Shown: positions 164-37,894 of the stretch, one piece after another
Layout of the letters: the number at the start of each line of letters is the position of its first letter
Position numbering within the stretch: position 1 is the stretch's first letter
Origin: Pseudomonadota bacterium
GTDB lineage: Bacteria > Pseudomonadota > Gammaproteobacteria > Halothiobacillales > Halothiobacillaceae
Assembly: GCA_021795795.1 (NCBI GenBank)
Contig: JAJYPA010000022.1
Span: 1-37,948 of the forward strand
Length of the DNA stretch: 37,948 nt
Direction of reading: 5' to 3'
Notes under the pieces: generated by a model
The model's input: the letters and a program-made list of their open reading frames with translations, nothing else
What the model was told of the DNA's origin: nothing
Databases searched by the model: none
Made by a program: the position numbers and the translations under genes

Positions 164-731
164 GCGTATCGTCGCGTATCCGTGGGGGTTCGTGCTAACT
201 CTTGCGGACTTCAACCCGCGCCATCCAGTCACGGTTTGGCCACGTTTTTCTCTCTCCGGGCCAGAATTCTCCGCTGCCTTGGCGGATAAAAAATCACGAA
301 GTCCGCAAGCCGAAAAAATTATATCGAGTAATTTCAATCAATTACACGTTTACTCGGGAGAACGGTTTGATTGGAGAATTGGTAGGCGGTGGGGATATGT
401 GCTGCCGGTTACCGGACCTTGCCCAATTCACACTCCCGACCCTGAAGAGACAGTCGTCGTCTCGTTGGTCCAGCGGCTGGTTTCTGAGTGGACCTGCCTT
501 ACATGGCAGAGACTGACTGCGAACTACTCGGCCAAAACGATCGGTCACACCAGACTCGGTTGAATTAGTCCTGGATGTCGGCTTTACGGCAGGCAGCTGG
601 GAAGGCACTATAGCCGCTGCGTGCCAATTTCAGACGGTCACTCTGCCCCACAAGTCCGCCACTCGATGGGCTGCATTACTTAGAACCCAGACGATAAACT
701 TGGGTGAAATTCAGTCAAGCCAGCACATGAA
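164..731. other. Gene-poor stretch after ssrA
   Basis: About 570 bases without a convincing gene. Short open frames exist on both strands (one of 133 codons from 162 on the plus strand) but none has a good ribosome-binding site, recognisable domain or protein-like composition. The first begins inside the ssrA terminator tract. The stretch may be decayed island sequence. No integrase remnant was recognisable by eye. Confidence 0.5.
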
Positions 732-760
732 TTGCATGAACTGCTGGCACTGAGTATACT
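732..760 (+). promoter_or_regulatory. Probable sigma-70 promoter of the fluoride operon
   Basis: A -35 box TTGCAT (732-737), a 17-bp spacer and a -10 box TATACT (755-760) would start transcription near 767, a few bases before the fluoride riboswitch aptamer. Position and spacing agree with a dedicated promoter for the crcB operon. Confidence 0.65.
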
Positions 761-770
761 GGATCCTAAT

Positions 771-826
771 CATCGGAGATGGCATTCCTCCGCATAACCG
801 CCCTTAGGGCTGATGATGCCTACTGG
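771..826 (+). ncRNA. Fluoride riboswitch (crcB motif RNA)
   Basis: The segment carries the conserved crcB-motif signature: GGAGATGGCATTCCTCC at 775-791, then AACCGCC, then GGGCTGATGATGCC at about 807-820. Riboswitches of this class bind fluoride with magnesium and switch on fluoride exporters. The 3' strand of the aptamer (TGCCTAC, 817-823) is also the 5' arm of the terminator hairpin that follows, so ligand binding and termination are mutually exclusive. It lies between a good promoter and crcB. Confidence 0.93.
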
Positions 827-864
827 TTTCCCGGAACGGGAAGGGGTAGGCATTTCGGCTTTTT
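816..864 (+). terminator. Terminator hairpin of the riboswitch expression platform
   Basis: ATGCCTAC (816-823) pairs with GTAGGCAT (846-853). An inner stem pairs 827-833 with 837-843 around a GAA loop. A short T tract follows at 860-864. The 5' arm overlaps the aptamer 3' end, which is how fluoride riboswitches control transcription: fluoride-bound aptamer prevents the hairpin and crcB is read. The T tract is offset a few bases from the stem, so termination may be leaky. Confidence 0.75.
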
Positions 865-901
865 CTTCGTTCCGGCCTCGAATTTGCATGAAAGGAACGA
901 A

Positions 902-1297
902 ATGGGATTATACGGTTTTATTTCAGTCGGCATAGGCGCTGCCATCGGCGCATGGCTCAGATGGTGGCTTGGCGTCATGCTCAACCCACTCTTTCCCACG
1001 CTGCCCCCTGGAACGCTTGCTGCCAACCTGCTGGGCGGTTATCTAATCGGCCTTGCCGTCGCTTTCTTTGCGCAACACCCTGGTTTGTCACCCGAGATCA
1101 GGCTTCTTGTCGTCACGGGCTTTCTCGGCGGGTTGACAACCTTTTCGACATTCTCGGCCGAAGTGGTGACGCTCTTTTCCAGATCAGAATATATTTGGGG
1201 AAGCATCGAGGCCGGAGTACATCTCTTAGGATCTTTCGCCATGACTGCGCTCGGCATGATGACGATCAGTCTGCTCAGGAATGGCGGGAAATCGTGA
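902..1297 (+). CDS. crcB: Fluoride channel CrcB (Fluc family)
   Basis: A 131-aa inner-membrane protein that exports fluoride by forming a dual-topology dimeric channel. Seen in the sequence: four hydrophobic segments; the family motifs NLLGGYLIG (about residues 41-49) and GFLGGLTTFSTFS (about 74-86), which hold the channel Asn and the Phe/Thr fluoride track. The frame is open upstream to 779, but that would start inside the riboswitch. The ATG at 902 follows AAAGGAACGA and gives the normal family length. It is the first gene of the operon controlled by the fluoride riboswitch, and its stop overlaps the GTG start of the next gene. Confidence 0.95.
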   Translation: MGLYGFISVGIGAAIGAWLRWWLGVMLNPLFPTLPPGTLAANLLGGYLIGLAVAFFAQHPGLSPEIRLLVVTGFLGGLTTFSTFSAEVVTLFSRSEYIWGSIEAGVHLLGSFAMTALGMMTISLLRNGGKS

Positions 1298-3363: not shown

Positions 3364-4293
3364 ATGTCAGGCTCTCATTCCCATGTTGTGACAATATCCG
3401 GCAAGCAATTGTGGGTTGCAACCTGTCTTACGTTCGCTTTTTGTCTGGGCGAGGCGGCAATGGGTTATTTCTCCAACAGTCTGGCGCTGATGGCAGATGC
3501 GGGTCACAATTTTGCAGATGCGCTGGCTTTGGCGCTCTCTGCCTTCGCCATATGGATGGCAACAAAGCCTGCTGACAGTAAACGGACTTTTGGCTACCAC
3601 CGCGTTGGCATTCTTGCCGCTTTAGTAAACGCCGCCGGTTTAGTCGTGATGGCTGGGGCAATCTTCTGGGAGGCTTTGCAACGCCTATCCTCCCCCGAGG
3701 CAGTCCGGAGCGGACCGATGATTTGGGTGGCACTCCTAGCCATCATCTTGAATTCGGGCATTGCGTGGTGGTTGTTCAGGGCTGCAAAAGAAGACCTGAA
3801 TATCCGAGGCGCCTATATGCACATGGTTGGCGATGCTGCGGCCTCTTTCGGTGTCGTCATTGCTGGCATCATTATCGCACTGACGGGTGCCTATATTGCT
3901 GATCCTATCGTTTCCATCCTATTCGCAGCCTTAGTCTTGTGGAGTTCGTGGGGTATCCTCACTGAATCTATTTACATACTGTTGGAGGCAATGCCAGCAG
4001 GCTTGGACTTGGCGAAAGTCGAGCAAGCAATTCGTGGTGTGGAGGGAGTCCTCGACACGCATGATATACACGTATGGACGGTCTCTTCAGGCTTGATTGC
4101 GGGAAGTTGCCACATCGTGGTGGCAGATCAGAGCGTAACTAACAGCCAGAAAATTCATCAGAATGTAGCGCACATGCTGGAACATGATTTCAGGATCAGC
4201 CACTGTACGATTCAAGTCGAGGTCGATGATTGTGGAGGACATGAGCACAAGGCACACAGCGAGCATCACCATCACCACGGACATGCCCACTAA
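3364..4293 (+). CDS. czcD: Cation diffusion facilitator metal exporter (CzcD-like)
   Basis: A 309-aa inner-membrane antiporter that expels Zn, Cd or Co in exchange for protons. Six hydrophobic segments are visible. The transport site is formed by HxxxD motifs: His48/Asp52 in TM2 (DAGHNFAD) and His153/Asp157 in TM5 (HMVGD). The cytoplasmic C-terminal domain contains DTHDIHVWTVSSG, the usual metal-binding fold of the family, and the tail ends in a His-rich string (HHHHHGHAH). The His-His set at TM2/TM5 suggests Zn/Cd selectivity. It is driven by the MerR operator 70 nt upstream, next to the divergent regulator. Confidence 0.93.
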   Translation: MSGSHSHVVTISGKQLWVATCLTFAFCLGEAAMGYFSNSLALMADAGHNFADALALALSAFAIWMATKPADSKRTFGYHRVGILAALVNAAGLVVMAGAIFWEALQRLSSPEAVRSGPMIWVALLAIILNSGIAWWLFRAAKEDLNIRGAYMHMVGDAAASFGVVIAGIIIALTGAYIADPIVSILFAALVLWSSWGILTESIYILLEAMPAGLDLAKVEQAIRGVEGVLDTHDIHVWTVSSGLIAGSCHIVVADQSVTNSQKIHQNVAHMLEHDFRISHCTIQVEVDDCGGHEHKAHSEHHHHHGHAH

Positions 4294-7982: not shown

Positions 7983-8299
7983 TCGTCTTCCCATGCATCC
8001 AGGATTTTTCGGATTTTTTTCTTGTCCGGCTCGGACATGGCTTTGAACTTGCGGAAAAATGCTTCATCCAGCACGGCCTCATCCGGCGTGGCCGAGGATT
8101 GAGTGAGCAGGAACTCAGTAGTGACATCGAGCACCGCCGCAATCTTGCTGATTTTCTCAGCCGACGGTTTCGGATCTTCCTTGTTCTCTAACTCCCAAAT
8201 GTAGCTCTTGCTGGATTCTGTCAATTCGGCCAGTTGTTCAAGGCTAAGCTTCTTTTGCTTTCGCAGTGCGTGAATTTTGTCGCCCAAGGGGGATGGCAC
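7979..8299 (-). CDS. XRE-family repressor with ImmA-sensitive layout
   Basis: A 106-aa DNA-binding protein. The HTH domain (KIHALRKQKKLSLEQLAEL through YIWELENKEDPKPSAEKISK, residues about 8-50) is a standard XRE/Cro fold; the tail is helical and charged (KKKIRKILDAWEDE). GTG at 8299 is chosen because GAGGAG lies 6 nt upstream; a longer frame from 8380 would run across the promoter region. It is probably the lysogeny repressor, controlling the divergent promoter at 8368-8397 and its own promoter. It is co-transcribed with the ImmA-like protease, its probable antagonist. Confidence 0.88.
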   Translation of the reverse strand: MPSPLGDKIHALRKQKKLSLEQLAELTESSKSYIWELENKEDPKPSAEKISKIAAVLDVTTEFLLTQSSATPDEAVLDEAFFRKFKAMSEPDKKKIRKILDAWEDE

Positions 8300-8333
8300 T
8301 GTTTTCTCCTCAGTAGTCTGATTTAGTCCGCAA

Positions 8334-8421
8334 ATAATACCACCACGCCGAACGAATATGTACCTGCTTGACAAACCCATACCCGACCATCAATAATTGC
8401 GATCGTTCGGTACGCCGAACG
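8334..8421. promoter_or_regulatory. Divergent promoter/operator region of the prophage switch
   Basis: Rightward: -35 TTGACA (8368-8373), an 18-bp spacer and -10 AATAAT (8392-8397). A perfect inverted repeat CGTTCGG-tacg-CCGAACG (8404-8421) lies at the expected start of transcription. Leftward: a -10-like TATTAT on the minus strand (8334-8339), with another CCGAACG copy at 8348-8354 just upstream. The shared heptamer is a good candidate operator for the XRE repressor, blocking both directions. Operator assignment is inference. Confidence 0.6.
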
Positions 8422-8506
8422 CTATCGGTCTGTAAATCCCCAACATGTTGACGGGGTGCTCTGGGCTGGTGCCAACCCGATCAACGCCTTGCAAAGGGGA
8501 ATGACA

Positions 8507-9736
8507 ATGAACGATGCTGAAAATCTGTCCAAACTGCTCGGTCACCTGCCGCCGGCAGTATTCCGTGATTTCATGGTGAGTGAATTCAGTCTGATCATGC
8601 CAGACATGGATAAGGCCCAGGCAAAGCGAGAGCAGCGCGCGACGATGGAGGCCGTCATTTCGTCCCTTGGTGTGGGCGCACGACAGAAAATCGAGGAAGT
8701 GGCCGAGCGCATCATTCTCTTGTCGGATGGCGCCGGGCAAGACGTCATCGAAGGCATAAGCCAAGACATCTTCGATGACAATGACAAGGTCGAATTTGCG
8801 GCAATACGCAACCAGTATGAGCGCGCCCTCTGGCTGTACATCCATGCACCCGCATTGTTCGAGGAAGCGTTTAATGCCCGGCAGGCGGATGTCTTCCGGC
8901 AAAGCGCATCTTGCTACTCAGGCTACGTTGCGCCCAAAGACCTCACTGTCTTGGAGGACGCGGCAGCACGCCAGGCTTTCCACCAGGCCGTCGCCAAGCA
9001 ACTCGGCTGTGCTGAGGATGCTGTCGCCGTGCAGGTTTTCAAGCGGCTGCGACCCGACACGCTCACGGGCGAGGAAGTGGATCTTTATCAGGTCAGCGTA
9101 CATCACAACCAACCTCCGGAGATTGTCGATTGCGTCCAGGCCAGCGAGTTGGTCCCGCAAGAGGTGATCCGGGCAGTGTCTTCCCACATCACATATGAGC
9201 CGGCCAATGGACATCTGGAGGTGCTGTCCAAAGACACCGACGGTCGCGAGGCCCTGGCACGCATCATGGCGGATTCGCTTCTGCAATCGCCAATTACCGG
9301 CGATAAAATCCCACTGAAGCAGTATGACTACCAGAGCCTGGCTGCGCCACGCATCTTCGATCTGTCAGATGAGAATGTGGCATCAGTCAAAGTGATCGAA
9401 CTCGGCTATACGCTGGCCAACCATCGTTCCTTGCTGGTGAAGATCTGGTCGAAGGACGTTGATGACATCTACACCGCAGCACGTTCACTGATCTCCTCGT
9501 CGTTTGATTTCCGCCATCACCAGATCAACTACGCCAAGTTGTCGATCCGCATCAAGAAGGTCGGCAAGGAACGGGCGCGCACGATCAGCGTCATCCTGCG
9601 TGACGACAACAGGTGCAACATCAAGACCAAGCGGGAAAAGGATCGGGCGCTGTGCGACCGCCTGCTGGCCAAGTGGCATTTGGTGAAGGAGATCAGTGAT
9701 GTCGAAGATGAGCCTGCGGACGCGCTCGCTGCTTGA
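8507..9736 (+). CDS. Hypothetical protein, first of an unknown two-gene module
   Basis: A 409-aa soluble protein that I do not recognise. The N-terminal third is helical and acidic, with no membrane segment; the C-terminal third is basic and beta-rich (FDFRHHQINYAKLSIRIKKV, then VILRDDNRCNIKTKREKD). No nuclease or ATPase motif is evident. AAAGGGGA precedes the ATG at 8507 at a good distance; in-frame ATGs at 8501 and earlier are less well placed. The end overlaps the next gene by 38 nt, so the two are translated together. It is transcribed divergently from the repressor and could belong to lysogenic conversion, defence or regulation. Confidence 0.78.
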   Translation: MNDAENLSKLLGHLPPAVFRDFMVSEFSLIMPDMDKAQAKREQRATMEAVISSLGVGARQKIEEVAERIILLSDGAGQDVIEGISQDIFDDNDKVEFAAIRNQYERALWLYIHAPALFEEAFNARQADVFRQSASCYSGYVAPKDLTVLEDAAARQAFHQAVAKQLGCAEDAVAVQVFKRLRPDTLTGEEVDLYQVSVHHNQPPEIVDCVQASELVPQEVIRAVSSHITYEPANGHLEVLSKDTDGREALARIMADSLLQSPITGDKIPLKQYDYQSLAAPRIFDLSDENVASVKVIELGYTLANHRSLLVKIWSKDVDDIYTAARSLISSSFDFRHHQINYAKLSIRIKKVGKERARTISVILRDDNRCNIKTKREKDRALCDRLLAKWHLVKEISDVEDEPADALAA

Positions 9737-18988: not shown

Positions 18989-20260
18989 ATGGAAAACCTC
19001 AACATCGAATACCGACCGGTCGATTCGCTGGTGCCCTACGTCAACAACGCGCGCACCCATAGCGATGAGCAGGTCGCCCAGATCGCGGCCAGCATCCGCG
19101 AGTTCGGCTGGACCAATCCCATTCTGGTGGATGGCGAACGCGGCCTGATCGCCGGACATGGCAGACTCAAGGCCGCCCGCGTGCTGGGATTGACGCAAGT
19201 ACCGGTGATCGAGTTGTCGCATCTGTCGGCAGCGCAAAAGCGCGCCTACATTCTGGCAGACAACCGCCTGGCCGAGAATGCCGGATGGGACAAGGAACTG
19301 CTGGCACTGGAACTGTCGGAATTGCAGACTTCCGAGTTTGATATCGGTCTGTTGGGCTTCAGCGACGACGAACTGGACGACATGCTGAATTCCGGTGACA
19401 AGGAAGGCTTGACCGACGACGATGCAGTGCCGGAAGTGCAGGAAGTCGCCATTACCCAGTTGGGCGATATCTGGTTGCTTGGCCAGCACCGTCTGCTGTG
19501 CGGGGATTCCACCAAGACGGACGATCTCAAGCAACTGATGCGGGATGAACTGGCCGACATGGCGTTCACCGATCCACCCTACAACGTCAACTACGCCAAT
19601 ACCGCGAAGGACAAACTGCGCGGCAAAAACCGCCCGATCCTGAACGACAACTTGGGCGACGATTTCGGGACATTCCTGACCGATGTCTGCGCAAACCTAC
19701 TTTCGGTAACCAAGGGCGCGGTGTACATCGCAATGAGCTCATCCGAACTCGACACCTTGCAGGCAGCATTCCGTGCCGCCGGTGGCAAGTGGTCGACGTT
19801 CATCATCTGGGCCAAGAACACATTCACGCTCGGGCGCGCCGATTACCAACGCCAGTACGAACCGATCCTGTACGGCTGGCGAGATGGTGCCGATCACTTC
19901 TGGTGCGGAGCACGCGATCAAGGCGATGTCTGGCAGATCAAGAAGCCTGCCAAGAACGACCTGCACCCGACCATGAAACCTGTCGAACTGGTCGAGCGCG
20001 CCATCCTCAACAGCAGCAAGTCGCGCGACATCGTGCTGGACTTGTTCGGCGGCTCTGGCACTACCCTGATCGCTGCCGAGAAGTCCGGTCGACAAGCTCG
20101 TTTGATCGAACTCGACCCCAAGTATGTCGATGTGATCGTGCATCGCTGGCAAGATTGGACGGGTTTGCAGGCCACCCGCCAGTCAGATGGCCTGCCATTT
20201 GACTCGCTTGGCGCTATTGCGCATCAATCCGATAAACCCGATCTCGACCCGGCTCCTTGA
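18989..20260 (+). CDS. ParB-domain DNA methyltransferase (orphan, DPPY class)
   Basis: A 423-aa two-domain protein. Residues about 5-100 are a ParB/Srx-like nuclease fold (YVNNARTHSDEQVAQIAASI, then GLIAGHGRLKAARVLG). The C-terminal part is an N6/N4 methyltransferase: catalytic TDPPYNV (about residues 193-199) precedes the SAM-binding LDLFGGSGTTLIA (about 350), the beta-class order. No restriction partner is adjacent, so it probably protects phage DNA or tunes expression. The ATG has no clear Shine-Dalgarno sequence and is 6 nt after a terminator T tract. The 3' end overlaps the convergent DUF3489 gene by 47 bp. Confidence 0.92.
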   Translation: MENLNIEYRPVDSLVPYVNNARTHSDEQVAQIAASIREFGWTNPILVDGERGLIAGHGRLKAARVLGLTQVPVIELSHLSAAQKRAYILADNRLAENAGWDKELLALELSELQTSEFDIGLLGFSDDELDDMLNSGDKEGLTDDDAVPEVQEVAITQLGDIWLLGQHRLLCGDSTKTDDLKQLMRDELADMAFTDPPYNVNYANTAKDKLRGKNRPILNDNLGDDFGTFLTDVCANLLSVTKGAVYIAMSSSELDTLQAAFRAAGGKWSTFIIWAKNTFTLGRADYQRQYEPILYGWRDGADHFWCGARDQGDVWQIKKPAKNDLHPTMKPVELVERAILNSSKSRDIVLDLFGGSGTTLIAAEKSGRQARLIELDPKYVDVIVHRWQDWTGLQATRQSDGLPFDSLGAIAHQSDKPDLDPAP

Positions 20261-31629: not shown

Positions 31630-31880
31630 ATTGGGATGCCGTCTACTGTCTCATCATCGAGCGCACTGGCTGGACCTGGGACTATGTCGAGCATCACATG
31701 GATCTGCCGCGCTTCCTGGCGCTCGATCGACACTGGAGCCGCCATCCGCCTCTGCGCGACATGGTGCAGGCTTATCTCGGCATCAAGCCTCAAGTTCCAC
31801 CGAAAACAACCGGCAAAGACCAAGCCGACCTCGATGAATTCATCGAACTCTTCAAAGCCGCCGGCGGGAGCACGACATGA
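31605..31880 (+). CDS. Tail assembly chaperone, second frame (gpT-like extension)
   Basis: About 91 residues in the -1 frame relative to the first chaperone, without a well-placed start of its own. The segment is clearly coding: DWDAVYCLIIERTGWTWDYV, then DLPRFLALDRHWSRHPPLRD and VQAYLGIKP. A frameshift at 31602-31606 would give a fused protein of about 183 aa, equivalent to lambda gpGT, whose T part contacts the tail tube protein. The stop overlaps the tape measure ATG by 4 nt. Confidence 0.75.
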   Translation, partial: GSASREPVDWDAVYCLIIERTGWTWDYVEHHMDLPRFLALDRHWSRHPPLRDMVQAYLGIKPQVPPKTTGKDQADLDEFIELFKAAGGSTT

Positions 31881-34171
31881 CCAAAGTCGCTGAGTTACAG
31901 ATCGAGATTGCGGCCAATGTCGCGCGGCTGACCGAGGATTTCAGCCGCGCAAAATCCGAAGTCAATCGCTCGATGAACAGCATCCAACGGGACGTCAAGG
32001 AACATTTGGAGGGCGTCCAGGAATCGCTCAAATCCATGAAGGAGATGGTCGAGGCGATGGGTGTCGCGCTGCTGGCCGAGCACCTGGTGGAGGCGGCGAA
32101 GGGGGCCGCCGAGTTCGGCGACCAGATCGAACATGCCGCACAGAAGACCGGGATGAGCGCTGAATCACTGCAGGGTCTGGGTTTTGCGGCAAAAATGTCG
32201 GACGTTGATTTCGAGTCATTGTCGGTTGGACTCGAGCATCTGTCGCGCGCCATGTTGCAGACGCAGCAAGGTTCACTGCAGTCGGCTTCCGCCTTTCAGT
32301 CGGTCGGGATTTCGGCCCAGCAACTCAAGAGCATGAGCATGGACGAGGTGCTGTCCAAGGTAGCCGACAAATTCCACGCGACCCAGGATGGGGCCACCAA
32401 GACAGCACTGGCCATGCAGATTTTTGGGCGCTCTGGCGCGGAATTGATCCCGTTGCTCGACCAAGGATCCGAGGGAATCGATGCCCTCAAAGCGAAGGCG
32501 AAACAGCTCGGCATCGTGATGAGCGATGAGGCGGTCAAGCAGTCAGCCGAGTTTGCCGACAAGCTGAAAGAACTCTCGGCCGAGGGGGAGGCGACGACTC
32601 GCAACCTGATGGGCGAACTCATGCCAGCGATGAACAAGATCGTGGGTGCGTTCCTCAAGGGGAGTTCCGATGGCGGGGCGCTGAAGGAGATTTTCCGGCA
32701 AATTGGCGATGGCGCCGTCTGGCTGACCGGATTCATCGCTAAACTGTCTGCAACGGTGGTGGCGCTCGGCAAAACGATTGCCATGGTCGCGGCCGTGGTG
32801 TCGCACCCGCTTTCCGCGAAATCCATCTTCAAGGACTGGATCGATGATGTCAATGCGCTACAGGATAAGACCAACCAGTTCCTGGAAAAACTCAACGAGG
32901 CGCCTTCTAAATCGTCGGAATCCGAATCGGAAGGTGCGACGGGCACTGGCTCGTTCAAGGTTTACAAGACCAGCGGCACAGGCAACAAATCGCACATGTC
33001 CGAGTACGAGCAGCGGCTCGCGGACGCCAAAATCTACTACCAGCAGACCAATGATCTGAGGCAGTACTCGAAGCAGCAGGAAATCCAGTACTGGCAGGAT
33101 ATTCTCGAGACGGAAAAGGTTTCTGCGAACGACCGCCTCGCCATTCAGCGCCGCGTCTCCTCGCTACGGCTGGAACAGATGAAGAAGGAGTCCGCCGACC
33201 GGCAAAAGCTGGCCGAGGAAGCCATCCAGGCATCCCGTGACCGGGCGCTCGGCGAGGTCGCGCTCGATGAGCAGAGGGCGCAGACGCAGCTGCAGTCCGG
33301 CCAAATCACCCATGACCAGTTGCTGCAGATTCAGCAGGCCTATGAGGAGAAGAAATACCGGATCGAAGTGGAAGCGCAGCAGAAACGCATCGCGCTCCTG
33401 CAGGGCGATCCGAATCACGATCCGGTGGCGCTGCAGAAGCAGCTTGATCAACTCGCGCAGATCCAGCAGAAGCATACGCTCGACATAGAAAGGATGCACA
33501 CCCAGGCGGCCGCCGCGTCAGCGGCAGCCTGGCAAAAGGCCTTCCAGCCGATCGCGCAGGCGTTTGATACCACCATCAAGGGCATGATCATGGGCACGAC
33601 CACCTGGCAGAAGGGGGTGACGAATCTCCTGAATTCGGTGGTGGCCGAGTTCGTCAATGCCGGCGTCAAGATGGTCACCCAATGGGCAGCGAACGAGATG
33701 GCCAAAACCGTCGCCACCATGACCGGTACGGCGACGCGCACGGCAGCCGAGCAGTCGGCCAATGCCACAGGATTGGCGTCTTCCGCCATGACGGTCGTCA
33801 AAGCCATCATGAACGATGCGGCCAAGGTGTTCTCGGGAGTCTGGGCCGCACTTGCCGGCATTCCCTATGTAGGGCCTGCCATGGCCGCTGGGGCGGCACC
33901 TGCCGCCATGGCCACCGTCGCAGGTGTTGCCGGCAGTGTTGCTTCCTCTGCAGGGGGTGCCTGGCAAATCCCGTCCGACCGGCTCAACTTTGTCCACAAA
34001 AACGAGACCATCCTGCCCGCTGACAAATCCGCCGGGCTCGACCGGCTCATCAGTGGGGGCGGCGGCACGATCCACATCCACGGCCAGCCGCAAGACCGGA
34101 TTTCGGTTGCCGATCTGCAGCAGATGCTCAAACAGATGGGCCGCAATTTCGTTAACGTCCTGCCGACCTGA
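31877..34171 (+). CDS. Tail tape measure protein
   Basis: A 764-aa protein that sets tail length. The N-terminus (KVAELQIEIAANVARLTEDF, then SFSRA-like helices and MEEAMGV-like turns to about residue 100) is a TMP_2-type domain. A long coiled coil with Gln/Lys/Glu-rich helices covers about residues 390-560. A hydrophobic Ala/Gly-rich zone (about 575-700, with AALAGIPYVGPAMAAGAAPA) may form membrane-spanning segments during DNA entry. It ends SVADLQQMLKQMGRNFVNVL. It directly follows the chaperone frame. Confidence 0.92.
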   Translation: MTKVAELQIEIAANVARLTEDFSRAKSEVNRSMNSIQRDVKEHLEGVQESLKSMKEMVEAMGVALLAEHLVEAAKGAAEFGDQIEHAAQKTGMSAESLQGLGFAAKMSDVDFESLSVGLEHLSRAMLQTQQGSLQSASAFQSVGISAQQLKSMSMDEVLSKVADKFHATQDGATKTALAMQIFGRSGAELIPLLDQGSEGIDALKAKAKQLGIVMSDEAVKQSAEFADKLKELSAEGEATTRNLMGELMPAMNKIVGAFLKGSSDGGALKEIFRQIGDGAVWLTGFIAKLSATVVALGKTIAMVAAVVSHPLSAKSIFKDWIDDVNALQDKTNQFLEKLNEAPSKSSESESEGATGTGSFKVYKTSGTGNKSHMSEYEQRLADAKIYYQQTNDLRQYSKQQEIQYWQDILETEKVSANDRLAIQRRVSSLRLEQMKKESADRQKLAEEAIQASRDRALGEVALDEQRAQTQLQSGQITHDQLLQIQQAYEEKKYRIEVEAQQKRIALLQGDPNHDPVALQKQLDQLAQIQQKHTLDIERMHTQAAAASAAAWQKAFQPIAQAFDTTIKGMIMGTTTWQKGVTNLLNSVVAEFVNAGVKMVTQWAANEMAKTVATMTGTATRTAAEQSANATGLASSAMTVVKAIMNDAAKVFSGVWAALAGIPYVGPAMAAGAAPAAMATVAGVAGSVASSAGGAWQIPSDRLNFVHKNETILPADKSAGLDRLISGGGGTIHIHGQPQDRISVADLQQMLKQMGRNFVNVLPT

Positions 34172-34174
34172 GCC

Positions 34175-37100
34175 ATGGGGATCGCACCCGCACCCCGCCC
34201 GCAGCTCTATCCGACACCACGGGTATCCAACGGCCTGTCGGATGCCTACACCGATATTCTGGGCGGAGAGCCGCTGCAATCGAATATGTGCGGGAACAAT
34301 ACCGCGCTCAATGCAGGTGGATTATCAGCAGTGCTGACAGTTCAGGCAGGCGGCTCCACGGGGAAGCAAGTCATCATCCCGCAGTCGTGGTTTGGGGGCA
34401 ACGTCACCTGGGTGCGCGGGCTTTTCAGTCCAGCCGCAACACCGCGTTATCAGGCTTTCATGGCCGATTTCACGGGGACGGACACGTCCAACTACGCCGA
34501 CACAACCCAGCCGGCGGTGAACCTGTATTCAGGTGGGGTGCTGTCGACCACGGTGCCGGTACTGGCGTCGGTCTCGGTGGGAACGCAGTTGCAGGCGTAC
34601 TATTCCTATCGGGATGGCACGCTCTCCGTCAAAGGGCAGTCCATGGAGGGCTGGCCGCAACTGCACGTCGATCCCTACCAGGGCACGGCGAACGACGGCG
34701 ACGACTACCTGATGGTGTCGCTCTACCACGCCTACCTGACCTCGGGAAACGAGAAGTACAAGAAACTTGCTGACCGGATAGGCAACGCGCTGCTCGATGC
34801 CGGACGGTGGGACAGCAATCACGTCCGCTTCGACATCCCGTTCTCAGCTCTGGATGGCGAGGTCGGGTACTACGATTATTCGGCACCCACCACGCCCTTT
34901 GCTGTCGTCAACTCGCCCTTGGGCCTGGAGATCGAGACGACGGTGAATAGTGGCGGCCCTCCCTGGAACTATGCAGGTTTCGGCCTTTGGCCGACCATCA
35001 ATATTCCGGCGGGAGCCATTTTCTCGTCCCTCGATGTCACGCTGATCGGCGACGGATCCGGGCGCTCGGTCCTGGTGAATCTGAATACCGATCCCACGAA
35101 ATCGATCAATGGAGATTACTACCGGCGCATCACCATGATCCCGACCGATGCGCATGGCGCAGTAACCGCCTCTTTGACGCAATCGGATTTCTGGAAAGTC
35201 GGCAACGTCGTCTACGATTCCCTGCACCAGGACTACAGTTACATCGGCACCTACGGCAGCAATGTCGCTTCCCTGATTCAGGAGGTCGATGCGCCCAACC
35301 GGCGCATCCGCACCCAGTTCCAGTACGACTTCACCGGCAACGGCTACGGCTATGCCGGCTGTTATTTCGGCGCCGCAGCACAGTCTAGCGCAGGAACATC
35401 GCATCTCAACTTCGATTTCTATGCGGCTCAGCCGGGCATCGGCACGCTCACCGCCGTGGATTCTGCTGGGGTGAGTCATGCGGTGTGGCTCTCCTGGGTG
35501 GCCGGCAAGAACAGTTTTTCCATACCGTGGGTGGGTTCGATTCCGCTGCCGCAATGCCAGATTTATGCGCCGGTGCAGCCCTGTTACTGGGGCGATGTTC
35601 CAGCGGCAGGGCTCTATTGGGGGCCGGATCAGGTGGGTTTTTCGCAAAGCACCTTCGCGCACCCGGTGCAGGAATTCAAATTCGACGCCGTGGGAAGCCC
35701 TATCACGTTTTCCATCATCGAGAATTCCTGGTACGCAGTCCTGCAGAATTATCCAGGCTGCACTGCTAACACCATCGCCTTCGACAGCATGCGCTATGAC
35801 GCGGTGGCGACCATGGCGGGTACCAACCCGACGCTGCTCAACGGCGTGCAAATCTCCTTTCCGTCGAACAACCTGAATCAACCCTATCAGGTCACCTTCA
35901 AGGAAATCGATTTCCAGATCACGCTGCAGGATGGTCCAGCATCCGATCCGGTGCGTTATCAGGGCATTCCGCGCTGGACCTACAAATGGACGGATAGCTT
36001 GGGTTACCTTGGCTACGGCTCCTGGCGAGGACCCTCGGCGGTGGGATACAACTGGCTCGCGGGCTGGTATCAGTCTGGAATCGTCAATCCAGACAATGGG
36101 CGCCGCATCTCGGACATGATGCTGGATTTCATGATGGACGCGCAAAACCAGTATGCCGCATGGTGGCCTGCCAAACTCAAAGGACCTTTCGTGCCGCGAT
36201 ACGGCAGGCCATCCTGGGAGGCGCTGACAACCCAGGGCTATATCGCCGGGACGATGCAGCCCTCGACCTACAACCAGTGGTACTACCCGGATACCGACGA
36301 CTGGTACGGCTACATGTACCGCGCGCTGCTGTCCGTTGCGCAGTTCTACTACTATTCGCGCTCGAGTACAGCCAAAACCATCCTCGACAACTGGATGGCG
36401 TGGCTGGATCAGAACATCGTCGCCTCCGGCAACTACTGGGCGCCGCCTTCCGACTTCTATCCGGACGGCACGGTGGGCTACACCTATCAGCCTATCTATT
36501 CCTTCACCTGTATCGCAGCGGCTTGCATCTACAAATACTGGGTGGATGGCGATGCCATCGCCTTCAAGTGGTACCGGCGCATGCTCGATTCGATGTTCGC
36601 CACCCAGCGCCAGACCGCGACCGGCATGCTTGCAGGAATTTATCCGACCGCAGAAGGATCAGGCTACGCCACGGCGAGCGTGGCGTTCACGGTGAATAAC
36701 GGTGCGACCGCACCTGTTGCGACGGCTTTCATCGCAGGCGGCAAGATTACCCATTACGACGTGGTAAATCCTGGCGCCGGGATCACTTCAATCAGTTGTC
36801 AGGTCACAGGCGACGGCTCCGGGGCAGCAGGAAATCCCTATCTCTCGGACGATCTGGTGGGCGCGTTTTCCACGTCGCATACCGGCTGGGAAGCGGCGGA
36901 GATCCTCAACACCTACGGGATGCTCATCAACGGCGCGCGTGCCGGCGGCACGGTGAGTTTTGCGTTGTCTCCCACCGCCAACGACCTCACCGCCTGGGAA
37001 GGCTTGCTGGCGTTCTACCAGCGCACATCGCGCGATATGCGCCCCTCGATGCAGACGGCGGATTGGATCCCGATCCATGAATACCGCGTCGACCCTTACC

Positions 37101-37894
37101 ACAACGGCTCCGCCATCGAGAACCCGATGGTTAAAGACACCCACGCCAAGGGGGCCATGTGGACGGAAACCATCGCCCCGACGCTCTATGCCTCGGTGGA
37201 ATACGCGCGCTATACAAACGACTGGTCCTGGACGGATGCGATCTACGCGCTCCTGATCGAATTTACCGGCAATATTGAGGACAAAACCATGCAGATTTTT
37301 CCGGCGCTTCCCGGGCTATCCTGGAACGTGCAGAAGACCCCGCAGTTCAGCACCATTTCTCACCGCGCCGTCTCGGGATATGAAGTGCGCACTGCACTCA
37401 TGCAGTATCCGCTCTGGACCTTTTCGCTCGCCTACGACCTGCTGCGTGACAACGCGACCAACGAACTCAAGACCCTGATGGGATTCTTCCTGCAGAGCCA
37501 GGGAAGTTTCGCGGCCTTCCTCTACAGCGACCCATCGGACAATGCCGTGACCAATCAGGGATTCGGCACCGGGGATGGGGTGACGACATCATTCCAGCTG
37601 ATTCGCGCCTACGGCGGATTCATCGAGCCCGTGCAAAACCTCAACGGTACGCCCAGCATTTACCTCAATGGCGTGCAGCAGACGGTAGGGATCGGCAATC
37701 AGTGCCAGATCAGTTCGACCGGACTCGTCACCTTCACGACCGCTCCGGCATCGGGCGCGGTACTCACCTGGACGGGCAATTTCTATTACCGGGTGCGCTT
37801 CGCGGCTGACAAGGCCGATTTCAACCAGTTCATGTACCAACTCTATGAACTCAAGCAACTGTCCTTCGTCGGCAGCCCGCTGAACAAGGTGTGA
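34175..37894 (+). CDS. Giant tail protein: putative enzyme region fused to DUF2460 distal tail protein
   Basis: A 1239-aa protein. Seen: a beta-rich N-terminus (about 1-170), a helical stretch (YLMVSLYHAYLTSGNEKYKK, about 177-196), two beta-sandwich-like regions (about 240-590), then a Trp/Tyr-rich helical region (about 590-1035; GYLGYGSWRGPSAVGYNWLA, YAAWWPAKLKGPFVPRYG), interrupted at about 825-880 by a GSGY-type beta insert. Helix-pair content resembles (alpha/alpha) toroid glycoside hydrolases, but I cannot place catalytic residues. Residues 1039-1239 are a complete DUF2460 domain (FPALPGLSWNVQKTPQFST; GTGDGVTTSFQLIRAYGGF). The ATG at 34175 follows the tape measure stop by 3 nt and has no clear Shine-Dalgarno sequence, so it is probably coupled. 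Confidence 0.85.
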   Translation: MGIAPAPRPQLYPTPRVSNGLSDAYTDILGGEPLQSNMCGNNTALNAGGLSAVLTVQAGGSTGKQVIIPQSWFGGNVTWVRGLFSPAATPRYQAFMADFTGTDTSNYADTTQPAVNLYSGGVLSTTVPVLASVSVGTQLQAYYSYRDGTLSVKGQSMEGWPQLHVDPYQGTANDGDDYLMVSLYHAYLTSGNEKYKKLADRIGNALLDAGRWDSNHVRFDIPFSALDGEVGYYDYSAPTTPFAVVNSPLGLEIETTVNSGGPPWNYAGFGLWPTINIPAGAIFSSLDVTLIGDGSGRSVLVNLNTDPTKSINGDYYRRITMIPTDAHGAVTASLTQSDFWKVGNVVYDSLHQDYSYIGTYGSNVASLIQEVDAPNRRIRTQFQYDFTGNGYGYAGCYFGAAAQSSAGTSHLNFDFYAAQPGIGTLTAVDSAGVSHAVWLSWVAGKNSFSIPWVGSIPLPQCQIYAPVQPCYWGDVPAAGLYWGPDQVGFSQSTFAHPVQEFKFDAVGSPITFSIIENSWYAVLQNYPGCTANTIAFDSMRYDAVATMAGTNPTLLNGVQISFPSNNLNQPYQVTFKEIDFQITLQDGPASDPVRYQGIPRWTYKWTDSLGYLGYGSWRGPSAVGYNWLAGWYQSGIVNPDNGRRISDMMLDFMMDAQNQYAAWWPAKLKGPFVPRYGRPSWEALTTQGYIAGTMQPSTYNQWYYPDTDDWYGYMYRALLSVAQFYYYSRSSTAKTILDNWMAWLDQNIVASGNYWAPPSDFYPDGTVGYTYQPIYSFTCIAAACIYKYWVDGDAIAFKWYRRMLDSMFATQRQTATGMLAGIYPTAEGSGYATASVAFTVNNGATAPVATAFIAGGKITHYDVVNPGAGITSISCQVTGDGSGAAGNPYLSDDLVGAFSTSHTGWEAAEILNTYGMLINGARAGGTVSFALSPTANDLTAWEGLLAFYQRTSRDMRPSMQTADWIPIHEYRVDPYHNGSAIENPMVKDTHAKGAMWTETIAPTLYASVEYARYTNDWSWTDAIYALLIEFTGNIEDKTMQIFPALPGLSWNVQKTPQFSTISHRAVSGYEVRTALMQYPLWTFSLAYDLLRDNATNELKTLMGFFLQSQGSFAAFLYSDPSDNAVTNQGFGTGDGVTTSFQLIRAYGGFIEPVQNLNGTPSIYLNGVQQTVGIGNQCQISSTGLVTFTTAPASGAVLTWTGNFYYRVRFAADKADFNQFMYQLYELKQLSFVGSPLNKV
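37277..37291 (+). promoter_or_regulatory. Internal Shine-Dalgarno and ATG for a stand-alone DUF2460 protein
   Basis: Inside the giant reading frame, GAGG (37277-37280) lies 8 nt before an in-frame ATG (37289-37291), exactly where DUF2460 proteins normally begin (M then QIFPALPGL). Translation from here would give a 201-aa protein ending at 37894, the usual family length. In the fusion, the same bases are read as the linker NIEDKT. This looks like a preserved ancestral start. Confidence 0.65.

What the first reader, a model, noticed from the sequence alone, without database searches (positions are those of the whole stretch)
34175..37894. In-frame fusion of a ~1000-residue putative carbohydrate-active region to the distal-tail protein DUF2460
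Seen: one uninterrupted frame of 1239 codons whose last 201 residues are a full DUF2460 domain, and whose first ~1038 contain beta-sandwich-like regions and a Trp/Tyr-rich paired-helix region. Known: DUF2460 is normally a ~200-aa protein right after the tape measure gene. Inference: the phage has mounted a large, possibly glycan-degrading module on the baseplate hub, giving a ring of enzyme copies at the tail tip. I could not identify catalytic acids, so the enzymatic role is open.
Basis: partly seen in the sequence, partly recalled or inferred. Interest (0 to 1): 0.78.

Follow-up and report, generated by a model that had tools for sequence, protein, structure and literature searches.

The report
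Sugar-cutting ring on phage tail tip
A phage tail-tip protein carries an extra thousand-residue domain, predicted to be ring-shaped, that looks like a rearranged relative of cellulose-cutting enzymes and may bind or trim sugars on the bacterial surface; some of its relatives have the same domain opened and re-joined at other places.

Summary
In detail: one 1239-codon frame directly follows the tape-measure gene and ends in a nearly full DUF2460 (distal tail protein, Dit) domain. The first ~1035 residues are a separate module with 30 relatives, predicted as an (alpha/alpha)6 toroid with three beta parts. Profile and fold searches point to GH48 cellulases, but with the helical pairs circularly permuted (B-C-D-E-F-A). 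In that register the GH48 acid, base and assisting histidine fall on E998, D174 and H976, invariant in the family; the evidence is good for E998, moderate for D174. Unexpectedly, 9 of the 30 relatives are themselves circularly permuted at two further cut points (two of the nine only partial). A distant family in Klebsiella, Alteromonas and other phages has a related ring with pair A first, in some phages apparently also on a Dit; two of three such proteins examined lack the acid, so a binding-only role remains possible. N-terminal extensions of DUF2460 exist in other forms (TIM barrel, F5/8-type), so this is a new variant of a known kind; the repeated permutation is the striking part.

The parts
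31877..34171 (+). tail tape measure protein gene, directly upstream
   Evidence: PHROG tape-measure families, e.g. phrog_2854 E 2e-53
34175..37894 (+). the fusion gene: toroid module (res 1-1035) + DUF2460 Dit (res 1043-1232)
34175..34684 (+). res 1-170: N-terminal beta domain
   Evidence: model mcde8149bc47e, mean pLDDT 85.2, pTM 0.80
34691..34804 (+). res 173-210: helix pair 1 (taken as GH48 position B); D174 (34694-34696) aligns with the GH48 catalytic base
   Evidence: moderate
34862..35974 (+). res 230-600: beta-sandwich-like region between helix pairs 1 and 2 (458-486 and 510-524 are low-confidence); the cut points of the permuted relatives (about 296 and 570) lie here
35975..36628 (+). 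res 601-818: helix pairs 2-4 (GH48 positions C, D, E); strongest GH48 similarity at 705-757
36629..36844 (+). res 819-890: beta insert
36845..37024 (+). res 891-950: helix pair 5 (GH48 position F by order)
   Evidence: best match in the KPNN133-type family at its last pair; not resolved against GH48 itself
37025..37279 (+). res 951-1035: helix pair 6 (GH48 position A); H976 (37100-37102) and E998 (37166-37168) align with the GH48 His and general acid
37301..37870 (+). res 1043-1232: DUF2460, distal tail protein domain
   Evidence: Pfam E 5.5e-41; RcGTA Dit 6tba by sequence

Best explanation
The gene encodes a distal tail protein that carries, on its N-terminus, a distant and circularly permuted relative of GH48 (alpha/alpha)6 glycosidases. 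Shown: the fusion, the relatives and their permutations. Predicted: the toroid fold. Inferred: the Dit part forms the ring at the tail tip (six copies, as in RcGTA), so that several toroids surround the tip; each takes a host surface glycan into its central groove and cuts it by an inverting mechanism, with E998 as acid (H976 tuning it) and D174 as base, while the beta domains hold the chain. This would clear a path through surface polysaccharide, or hold on to it, before the hub reaches the envelope.
For: Six helix pairs in the model. Foldseek's first seven PDB rows are all GH48 (best E 8e-7; 14 of the 50 rows shown). A profile of 15 family members finds GH48 4jjj at E 5.9e-5. Pfam GH48 is above its cutoff in P0006 and P0023. 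hhalign puts res 705-812 on GH48 at Prob 95.5; its next choice, res 974-1031, falls on the GH48 acid region, i.e. in the wrapped-round register. For the piece 951-1035 no column-shuffled GH48 profile reached the real score (0 of 60; 0 of 250), nor did 25 beta-part pieces of the same length; for 700-765, 0 of 60. Windows 992-1011 all choose the register E998 = acid Glu (z up to 5.9). Res 172-188 choose the register D174 = base Asp as best of 618 places and are in turn the best module window for that GH48 stretch. The base is identified by N224 in the chain of the D224N mutant 4jjj (title, chain); roles of acid, base and His from PMC4055089 (passages). E998 26 of 26, H976 26 of 26, D174 20 of the 20 rows with a letter there. 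All ten GH48 rows stop at model residue 931-933, before pair 6, while the 40 other rows run to 1009-1035. Dit and its position; hexamer.
Against: The window protein itself has no Pfam GH48 match; of 13 members scanned 2 are above the cutoff (over 61 and 72 of 619 positions), 1 below it, 10 without a match; the Limnobacter gene is below it too. hhalign's own probability for pair 6 on GH48 is only 2-7%. By hhalign, pieces for pairs 1, 2, 4 and 5 are not significant (reached by 10, 26, 9 and 37 of 60 shuffles), and pair 1 landed on GH48 pair D, not on the base. In the window scan, other stretches reach similar z in unexpected registers (749-756 up to 6.4, 528-530 up to 5.5), the 30-residue pair-6 window is reached by 11 of 488 beta decoys in z (none in score) and by 10 of 300 shuffles in score, a window 970-979 does not find the PYH place that 974-981 finds, and the pair-1 window was picked by eye (3 of 527 decoys reach its z, none its score). 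Pair 1 resembles pair A of the KPNN133-type family more than pair B (z 6.2 against 4.8). GH48 E44 has no acidic partner (K987 is variable; D988 is next to it). Foldseek TM-scores to GH48 are low (target-normalised at most 0.27), and epimerases and GH76 have higher VIA Z (23.6 and 22.2 against 19.1). I had no coordinates, so the distance E998-D174 is unmeasured. In the distant family two of three apparently Dit-fused proteins lack the acid.
Confidence: 0.66

Rival explanations
1. The toroid is a binding module only: a former glycosidase turned lectin, mounted on the Dit like the carbohydrate-binding modules of evolved Dits, that holds the phage on the cell surface without cutting.
For: Evolved Dits with CBMs are described in Gram-positive phages (search listing and abstract starts; e.g. 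PMC9128512). In the KPNN133-type family SAKp11 and Smarc1, both apparently fused to a Dit, have GTSA and GTSL in place of GTSE and no aligned segment in the pair-B region. Eight of 30 relatives carry propeller-type domains (precomputed Pfam).
Against: In the window's own family the three catalytic-type residues are invariant, which binding alone does not require.
Confidence: 0.23
2. The toroid is a sugar-active enzyme of another (alpha/alpha)6 kind (epimerase-, GH76- or GH8-like); the GH48 likeness is only that of a shared fold.
Against: Identity to the non-GH48 rows is 6-12%, to GH48 15-16%; among solved structures only GH48 is found by the family profile for the helical part. GH8 was not tested.
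Confidence: 0.08
3. Structural extension only, without sugar contact.
For: Little; tail proteins often carry spacer domains (general knowledge).
Against: The same module occurs on a Dit, behind DUF2612 (P0026), joined to a tail-fibre-type region (P0012, P0017) and alone in a tail-fibre region, and keeps invariant residues.
Confidence: 0.03

Closest known systems
GH48 cellulases (Cel48F, CelS, Cel48A; PF02011)
   Same: (alpha/alpha)6 toroid; aligned acid Glu, base Asp and His; sequence similarity strongest in the fourth helical pair, D
   Different: helical pairs in circularly permuted order, large beta parts, no E44 equivalent, phage tail context, no Pfam signal in most members scanned (10 of 13)
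KPNN133_028-type tail proteins (Klebsiella phage YMC16/01/N133, MF476925; Alteromonas R7M, R9Y1, R8W; Javan394; LASTA)
   Same: related toroid (hhalign Prob 97.6, E 2.6e-12 over res 617-765); the Klebsiella gene sits right after the tape measure gene, as here
   Different: pair A at the N-terminus (order A-beta-B-beta-C-D-E-F, read); no DUF2460 match by Pfam; other anchors by annotation (distal tail, GTA ORF15-like/megatron, tail fibre)
DUF2460 with NCTSP_N and TIM-barrel_NCTSP (PF23844, PF23845)
   Same: large N-terminal enzyme-like fold fused to DUF2460 (L045, L047, L048)
   Different: TIM barrel, not a toroid
Evolved Dits with carbohydrate-binding modules (Gram-positive siphophages)
   Same: sugar-type domain carried by the distal tail protein (titles and abstract starts)
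   Different: here a whole toroid at the N-terminus; the named bacteria with relatives (Limnobacter, a Neisseriaceae isolate) are Gram-negative
alpha/alpha toroid depolymerase candidates of DepoScope (PMC11326577)
   Same: same fold class in phage proteins
   Different: there 11 of 984 fold hits; no GH48 assignment or Dit fusion in the passages seen

Membership tests
DUF2460 / distal tail protein Rcc01695 family | match to PF09343 above its cutoff over nearly the whole profile | tested here: met
   140.7 bits (cutoff 30.4), 6-202 of 205
DUF2460 / distal tail protein Rcc01695 family | NCBIfam TIGR02217 subfamily cutoff | tested here: not met
   57.9 bits against 136.65; so a Dit of the wider family, not of the TIGR02217 subfamily
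DUF2460 / distal tail protein Rcc01695 family | gene directly after the tape measure gene | tested here: met
DUF2460 / distal tail protein Rcc01695 family | hexameric ring at the tail tip | not testable with these tools
   known for RcGTA (PMC7296036 passages)
GH48 | PF02011 above cutoff | tested here: not met
   window protein: no match; relatives P0006 28.4 and P0023 29.1 bits, cutoff 25
GH48 | (alpha/alpha)6 toroid | tested here: met
   prediction and PDB comparison
GH48 | catalytic Glu acid and Asp base | tested here: met
   E998 and D174 by alignment in the permuted register; good for E998, moderate for D174; no geometry
GH48 | order of helical pairs A to F | tested here: not met
   order here B-C-D-E-F-A
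GH48 | hydrolysis of beta-1,4-glucan with inversion | not testable with these tools
   -
Evolved Dit | sugar-binding domain within or on a Dit | tested here: inconclusive
   module on a Dit shown; sugar binding inferred from fold only

The most novel reading that the evidence does not exclude
A family of phage tail glycosidases whose closed ring of domains evolution has opened and re-joined repeatedly: the A-first form (KPNN133 type), the window's A-last form, a form cut at about residue 296 and one cut at about 570, plus a form split over two genes. The same catalytic ring can thus be hung on a Dit, a hub or a fibre by different edges. This would be a natural series of circular permutants of one enzyme, selected for how it is mounted on a virion.
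Probability: 0.5. Interest if true: 0.82.

Novelty: new variant of a known kind. Interest (0 to 1): 0.62.

Why it matters
In one survey of phage depolymerase folds beta-helices and propellers made up nearly all hits and toroids about 1% (PMC11326577 passages). This family gives named candidate catalytic residues to test, ties DUF2460/Dit proteins to surface-glycan processing, and offers a natural set of circular permutants of one ring-shaped domain.

Tried and rejected
A profile search of res 936-1035 alone against the PDB found no GH48 (one chance hit at E 0.68); the wrapped-round register rests on hhalign and window scans with GH48 sequences from plasmids instead. tblastn of a distant member (P0028) against phage genomes found nothing; tblastn of the window protein found only the DUF2460 end, from residue 1036 on, in 56 phage records. 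GH48 by Pfam in genomes of the Limnobacter phylum: 1 of 299, the Limnobacter module itself, below cutoff. The module in the same phylum: 3 of 398, two of them only a short stretch near the beta insert. Viral-contig scans with P0023 and P0017 found no relatives; the scan with P0018 found three loci of other forms. So the genomic context of the permuted genes is unknown. KPNN133-type against GH48 directly by hhalign: only Prob 6.9, and its pair-B Asp does not fall on the GH48 base in the window scan.

A second model, res 590-1239 without pair 1 and the N-terminal beta parts, fell to pLDDT 62.6. Res 951-1000 dropped from 86-92 to about 31-43, but DUF2460 was poor as well and that alignment was shallower (16 rows against 27), so I draw nothing from it and did not search with it; the Dit part rests on sequence.

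The PHROG name 'glycoside hydrolase' (phrog_2913) was rejected as evidence: it matches res 1023-1235, the DUF2460 end. Foldseek rows for birnavirus capsids and Cry proteins were set aside as beta-sandwich matches with TM below 0.2. 'The permuted relatives are assembly errors' was rejected as the sole cause: P0012, P0013, P0017 and P0018 are 59-73% identical to each other in the stretches compared and, with P0027, share the start near residue 296 and the 1032-to-5 or 1039-to-11 junction.

Rows dropped or partial: both relative searches scored only the candidates sharing most words, so 30 is a lower bound. A1 holds the window piece and 14 of the first 25 relatives. A2 holds the window piece and 26 of 30 (P0023, P0024, P0030, P0031 left out); five permuted ones are in it with one half aligned, which with the truncated P0006 makes the six rows without a letter at D174. 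P0029 was dropped from the counts because its C-half is another protein; one search counted it. The tree used 27 of 31 sequences. My notes say 4 bases to the tape-measure gene (entry 1) and, in the entry, 8 permuted relatives; 3 bases and 9 relatives are right.
Full report
The frame 34175-37894 (+) has 1239 codons and an ATG start, lies three bases after the tape-measure gene, and ends in a nearly complete DUF2460 domain, residues 1043-1232. DUF2460 is the distal tail protein family of the RcGTA protein Rcc01695. The same fusion is found in a 91% identical protein and five further relatives with PF09343, in the viral contig L001 and in Limnobacter litoralis. There the gene follows a 967-aa ORF at the tape-measure place (not scanned) and is followed by genes matching tail assembly, minor tail and hub-type tail families, so it is taken as a prophage. 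Downstream of the homologous gene L001 has a gene of the same hub-type family. The window carries integrase, primase, terminase, portal, protease and capsid genes, so a temperate tailed phage is likely.

The first 1035 residues are a module of their own. Two capped searches gave 30 relatives. Six carry DUF2460 (precomputed Pfam). Others are about 1000 aa and stand alone (e.g. P0008, P0022, P0027, P0028); one follows DUF2612 (P0026); one N-half is joined to an esterase-type domain (P0029, name and domain as given by the source). Eight of the 30 carry propeller-type domains (precomputed Pfam). In Neisseriaceae JH1-16 the stand-alone P0022 lies in a Mu-like baseplate operon, after hub, gpJ-type, Gp48-type and short tail-fibre-type genes and before another gene with tail-fibre matches (L012). 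This is how an exchangeable receptor-binding or receptor-cutting part behaves (inference).

Sequence points to GH48 and explains this. A family profile finds 4jjj at E 5.9e-5; Pfam GH48 is over its cutoff in P0006 and P0023, over 61 and 72 of 619 positions, and absent in 10 of 13 members scanned, the window's included. With five GH48-type proteins from plasmids hhalign aligns res 705-812 at Prob 95.5 and, as second choice with a low probability of its own, res 974-1031 with the GH48 N-terminal acid region. Window scans place pair 1 on the base region (601-603 in L027 numbers), pair 2 at 679, pair 3 at 790, pair 4 at 879 and pair 6 at 417, i.e. the circular order B-C-D-E-(F)-A.

Controls. By hhalign no shuffle reaches pair 3 (0 of 60) or pair 6 (0 of 60; 0 of 250 and 0 of 25 beta pieces); pairs 1, 2, 4 and 5 are reached by 10, 26, 9 and 37 of 60, and pair 1 lands on GH48 pair D. 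By windows, pair 3 is reached by 0 of 443 beta decoys and 0 of 300 shuffles; the 17-residue pair-1 window by 3 of 527 decoys in z and none in score, and by 1 and 0 of 300 shuffles; pair 2 by 5 of 488 decoys in z, none in score, and by 5 and 3 of 300 shuffles; the 30-residue pair-6 window by 11 of 488 in z, none in score, and by 6 and 10 of 300; pair 4 is not significant; other stretches reach similar z in unexpected registers. So pairs 3 and 6 are well placed, pairs 1 and 2 moderately, 4 and 5 by order only.

Catalytic residues. 4jjj is a D224N mutant (title); its chain reads APNADARA where the other GH48 chains printed read APDADARA, so the base is the first Asp. It falls on D174. The acid Glu falls on E998, and the His that hydrogen-bonds it (H36 in Cel48F, PMC4055089 passages) on H976. 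They are invariant in the rows that have a letter: 20 of 20, 26 of 26, 26 of 26. E44 of Cel48F has no acidic partner (K987).

A distant sister family. Foldseek against viral models found tail proteins of Klebsiella, Alteromonas and Pseudomonas phages. One, taken to be KPNN133_028 by phage name and length (1175 aa), sits directly after the tape measure gene of Klebsiella phage YMC16/01/N133. tblastn finds 120 phage records with a match, but only that phage's own two records over at least 80% of it. Its N-terminal part is related to the module (Prob 97.6, E 2.6e-12) but begins with the pair that has the GTSE motif, whose best GH48 place is the acid region (z 4.2). GTSE is kept in 6 of 8 proteins aligned and an Asp in pair B in 6 of 6 rows; SAKp11 and Smarc1 lost the Glu and have no row there. 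So some Dit-mounted toroids are probably inactive binders.

Circular permutation inside the family. Of the 30 relatives, 21 are collinear with the window (P0006 starts at 180, P0029 has only the N-half) and 9 are permuted: five are cut near 296 (P0012, P0013, P0017, P0018, P0027), two near 570 (P0023, P0024), two are partial (P0030, P0031: 881-1032, then 10-296, then sequence without a family match for P0030). P0027 is 993 aa: window 295-1039 followed by 11-293 and nothing else. In all nine the window's C-terminal end (1032-1039) is joined to its N-terminal end (5-18) within 12 residues. In a tree of a 218-column core the 570 pair lies apart from the 296 group, which is not a clean clade (collinear P0008 nests in it with support 0.67; P0027 lies apart), so at least two events or much recombination. 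In viral contig L008 the module is split over two neighbouring genes. Such tolerance is expected of a ring whose ends meet.

Known context. DUF2460 fusions are not new in kind: of six long open frames fetched, three are NCTSP_N + TIM-barrel_NCTSP + DUF2460, one has two F5/8-type domains before DUF2460, and two have DUF2460 near the start of the reading frame (L046, 212 aa; L049, 504 aa). Evolved Dits with sugar-binding modules are described in Gram-positive phages (abstract starts). No title on a GH48-like or permuted toroid on a Dit appeared in the listings (open-licence PMC only, listings capped).

Judgement. I think most likely that the Dit ring displays several toroids around the tail tip which cut surface polysaccharide; fold about 0.95, GH48-type permuted core about 0.78, activity about 0.68 (my estimates). 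It is not filed as GH48, since two defining features were not met; what it works like, an inverting toroid glycosidase, stands apart from that.

Noticed in passing
P0012, P0013, P0017, P0018, P0023, P0024, P0027, P0030, P0031: Relatives of the module with circularly permuted order (cuts near window residues 296 and 570; P0030 and P0031 partial).
   Followed up: yes
L008:3747-7964 and 7995-9275: In an 85-kb viral contig the module is split: N-half joined to an esterase-type region, C-half as the next gene, complementary at about residue 608.
   Followed up: partly
P0005, P0007, P0010, P0012, P0013, P0020, P0025, P0026: Beta-propeller-type domains (SGL, Lactonase and similar models) inserted at different places of the same module.
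   Followed up: partly
L050:1345-3249: DUF2460 protein of 634 aa with two N-terminal F5/8-type C (galactose-binding) domains.
   Followed up: partly
L006:4402-6852: Brevundimonas phage Polewnik: 816-aa DUF2460 protein with an N-terminal glycine-rich (ALK_LTK_GRD) match.
   Followed up: no
window residues about 375-453 of the fusion protein: Part of the beta region matches a solved '32 kDa protein' (9e99, 9lbz, 9ld7) at E 5.6e-4 in the family profile search.
   Followed up: no
phrog_2913: The PHROG name 'glycoside hydrolase' belongs to a family that matches the DUF2460 end here, so the name may mislead annotation pipelines.
   Followed up: no
window 3364-4293: Cation-efflux-like gene (phrog_7308) in the moron category, near the integrase.
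   Followed up: no
window 18989-20260: Protein matching both ParB-like and DNA methyltransferase families.
   Followed up: no
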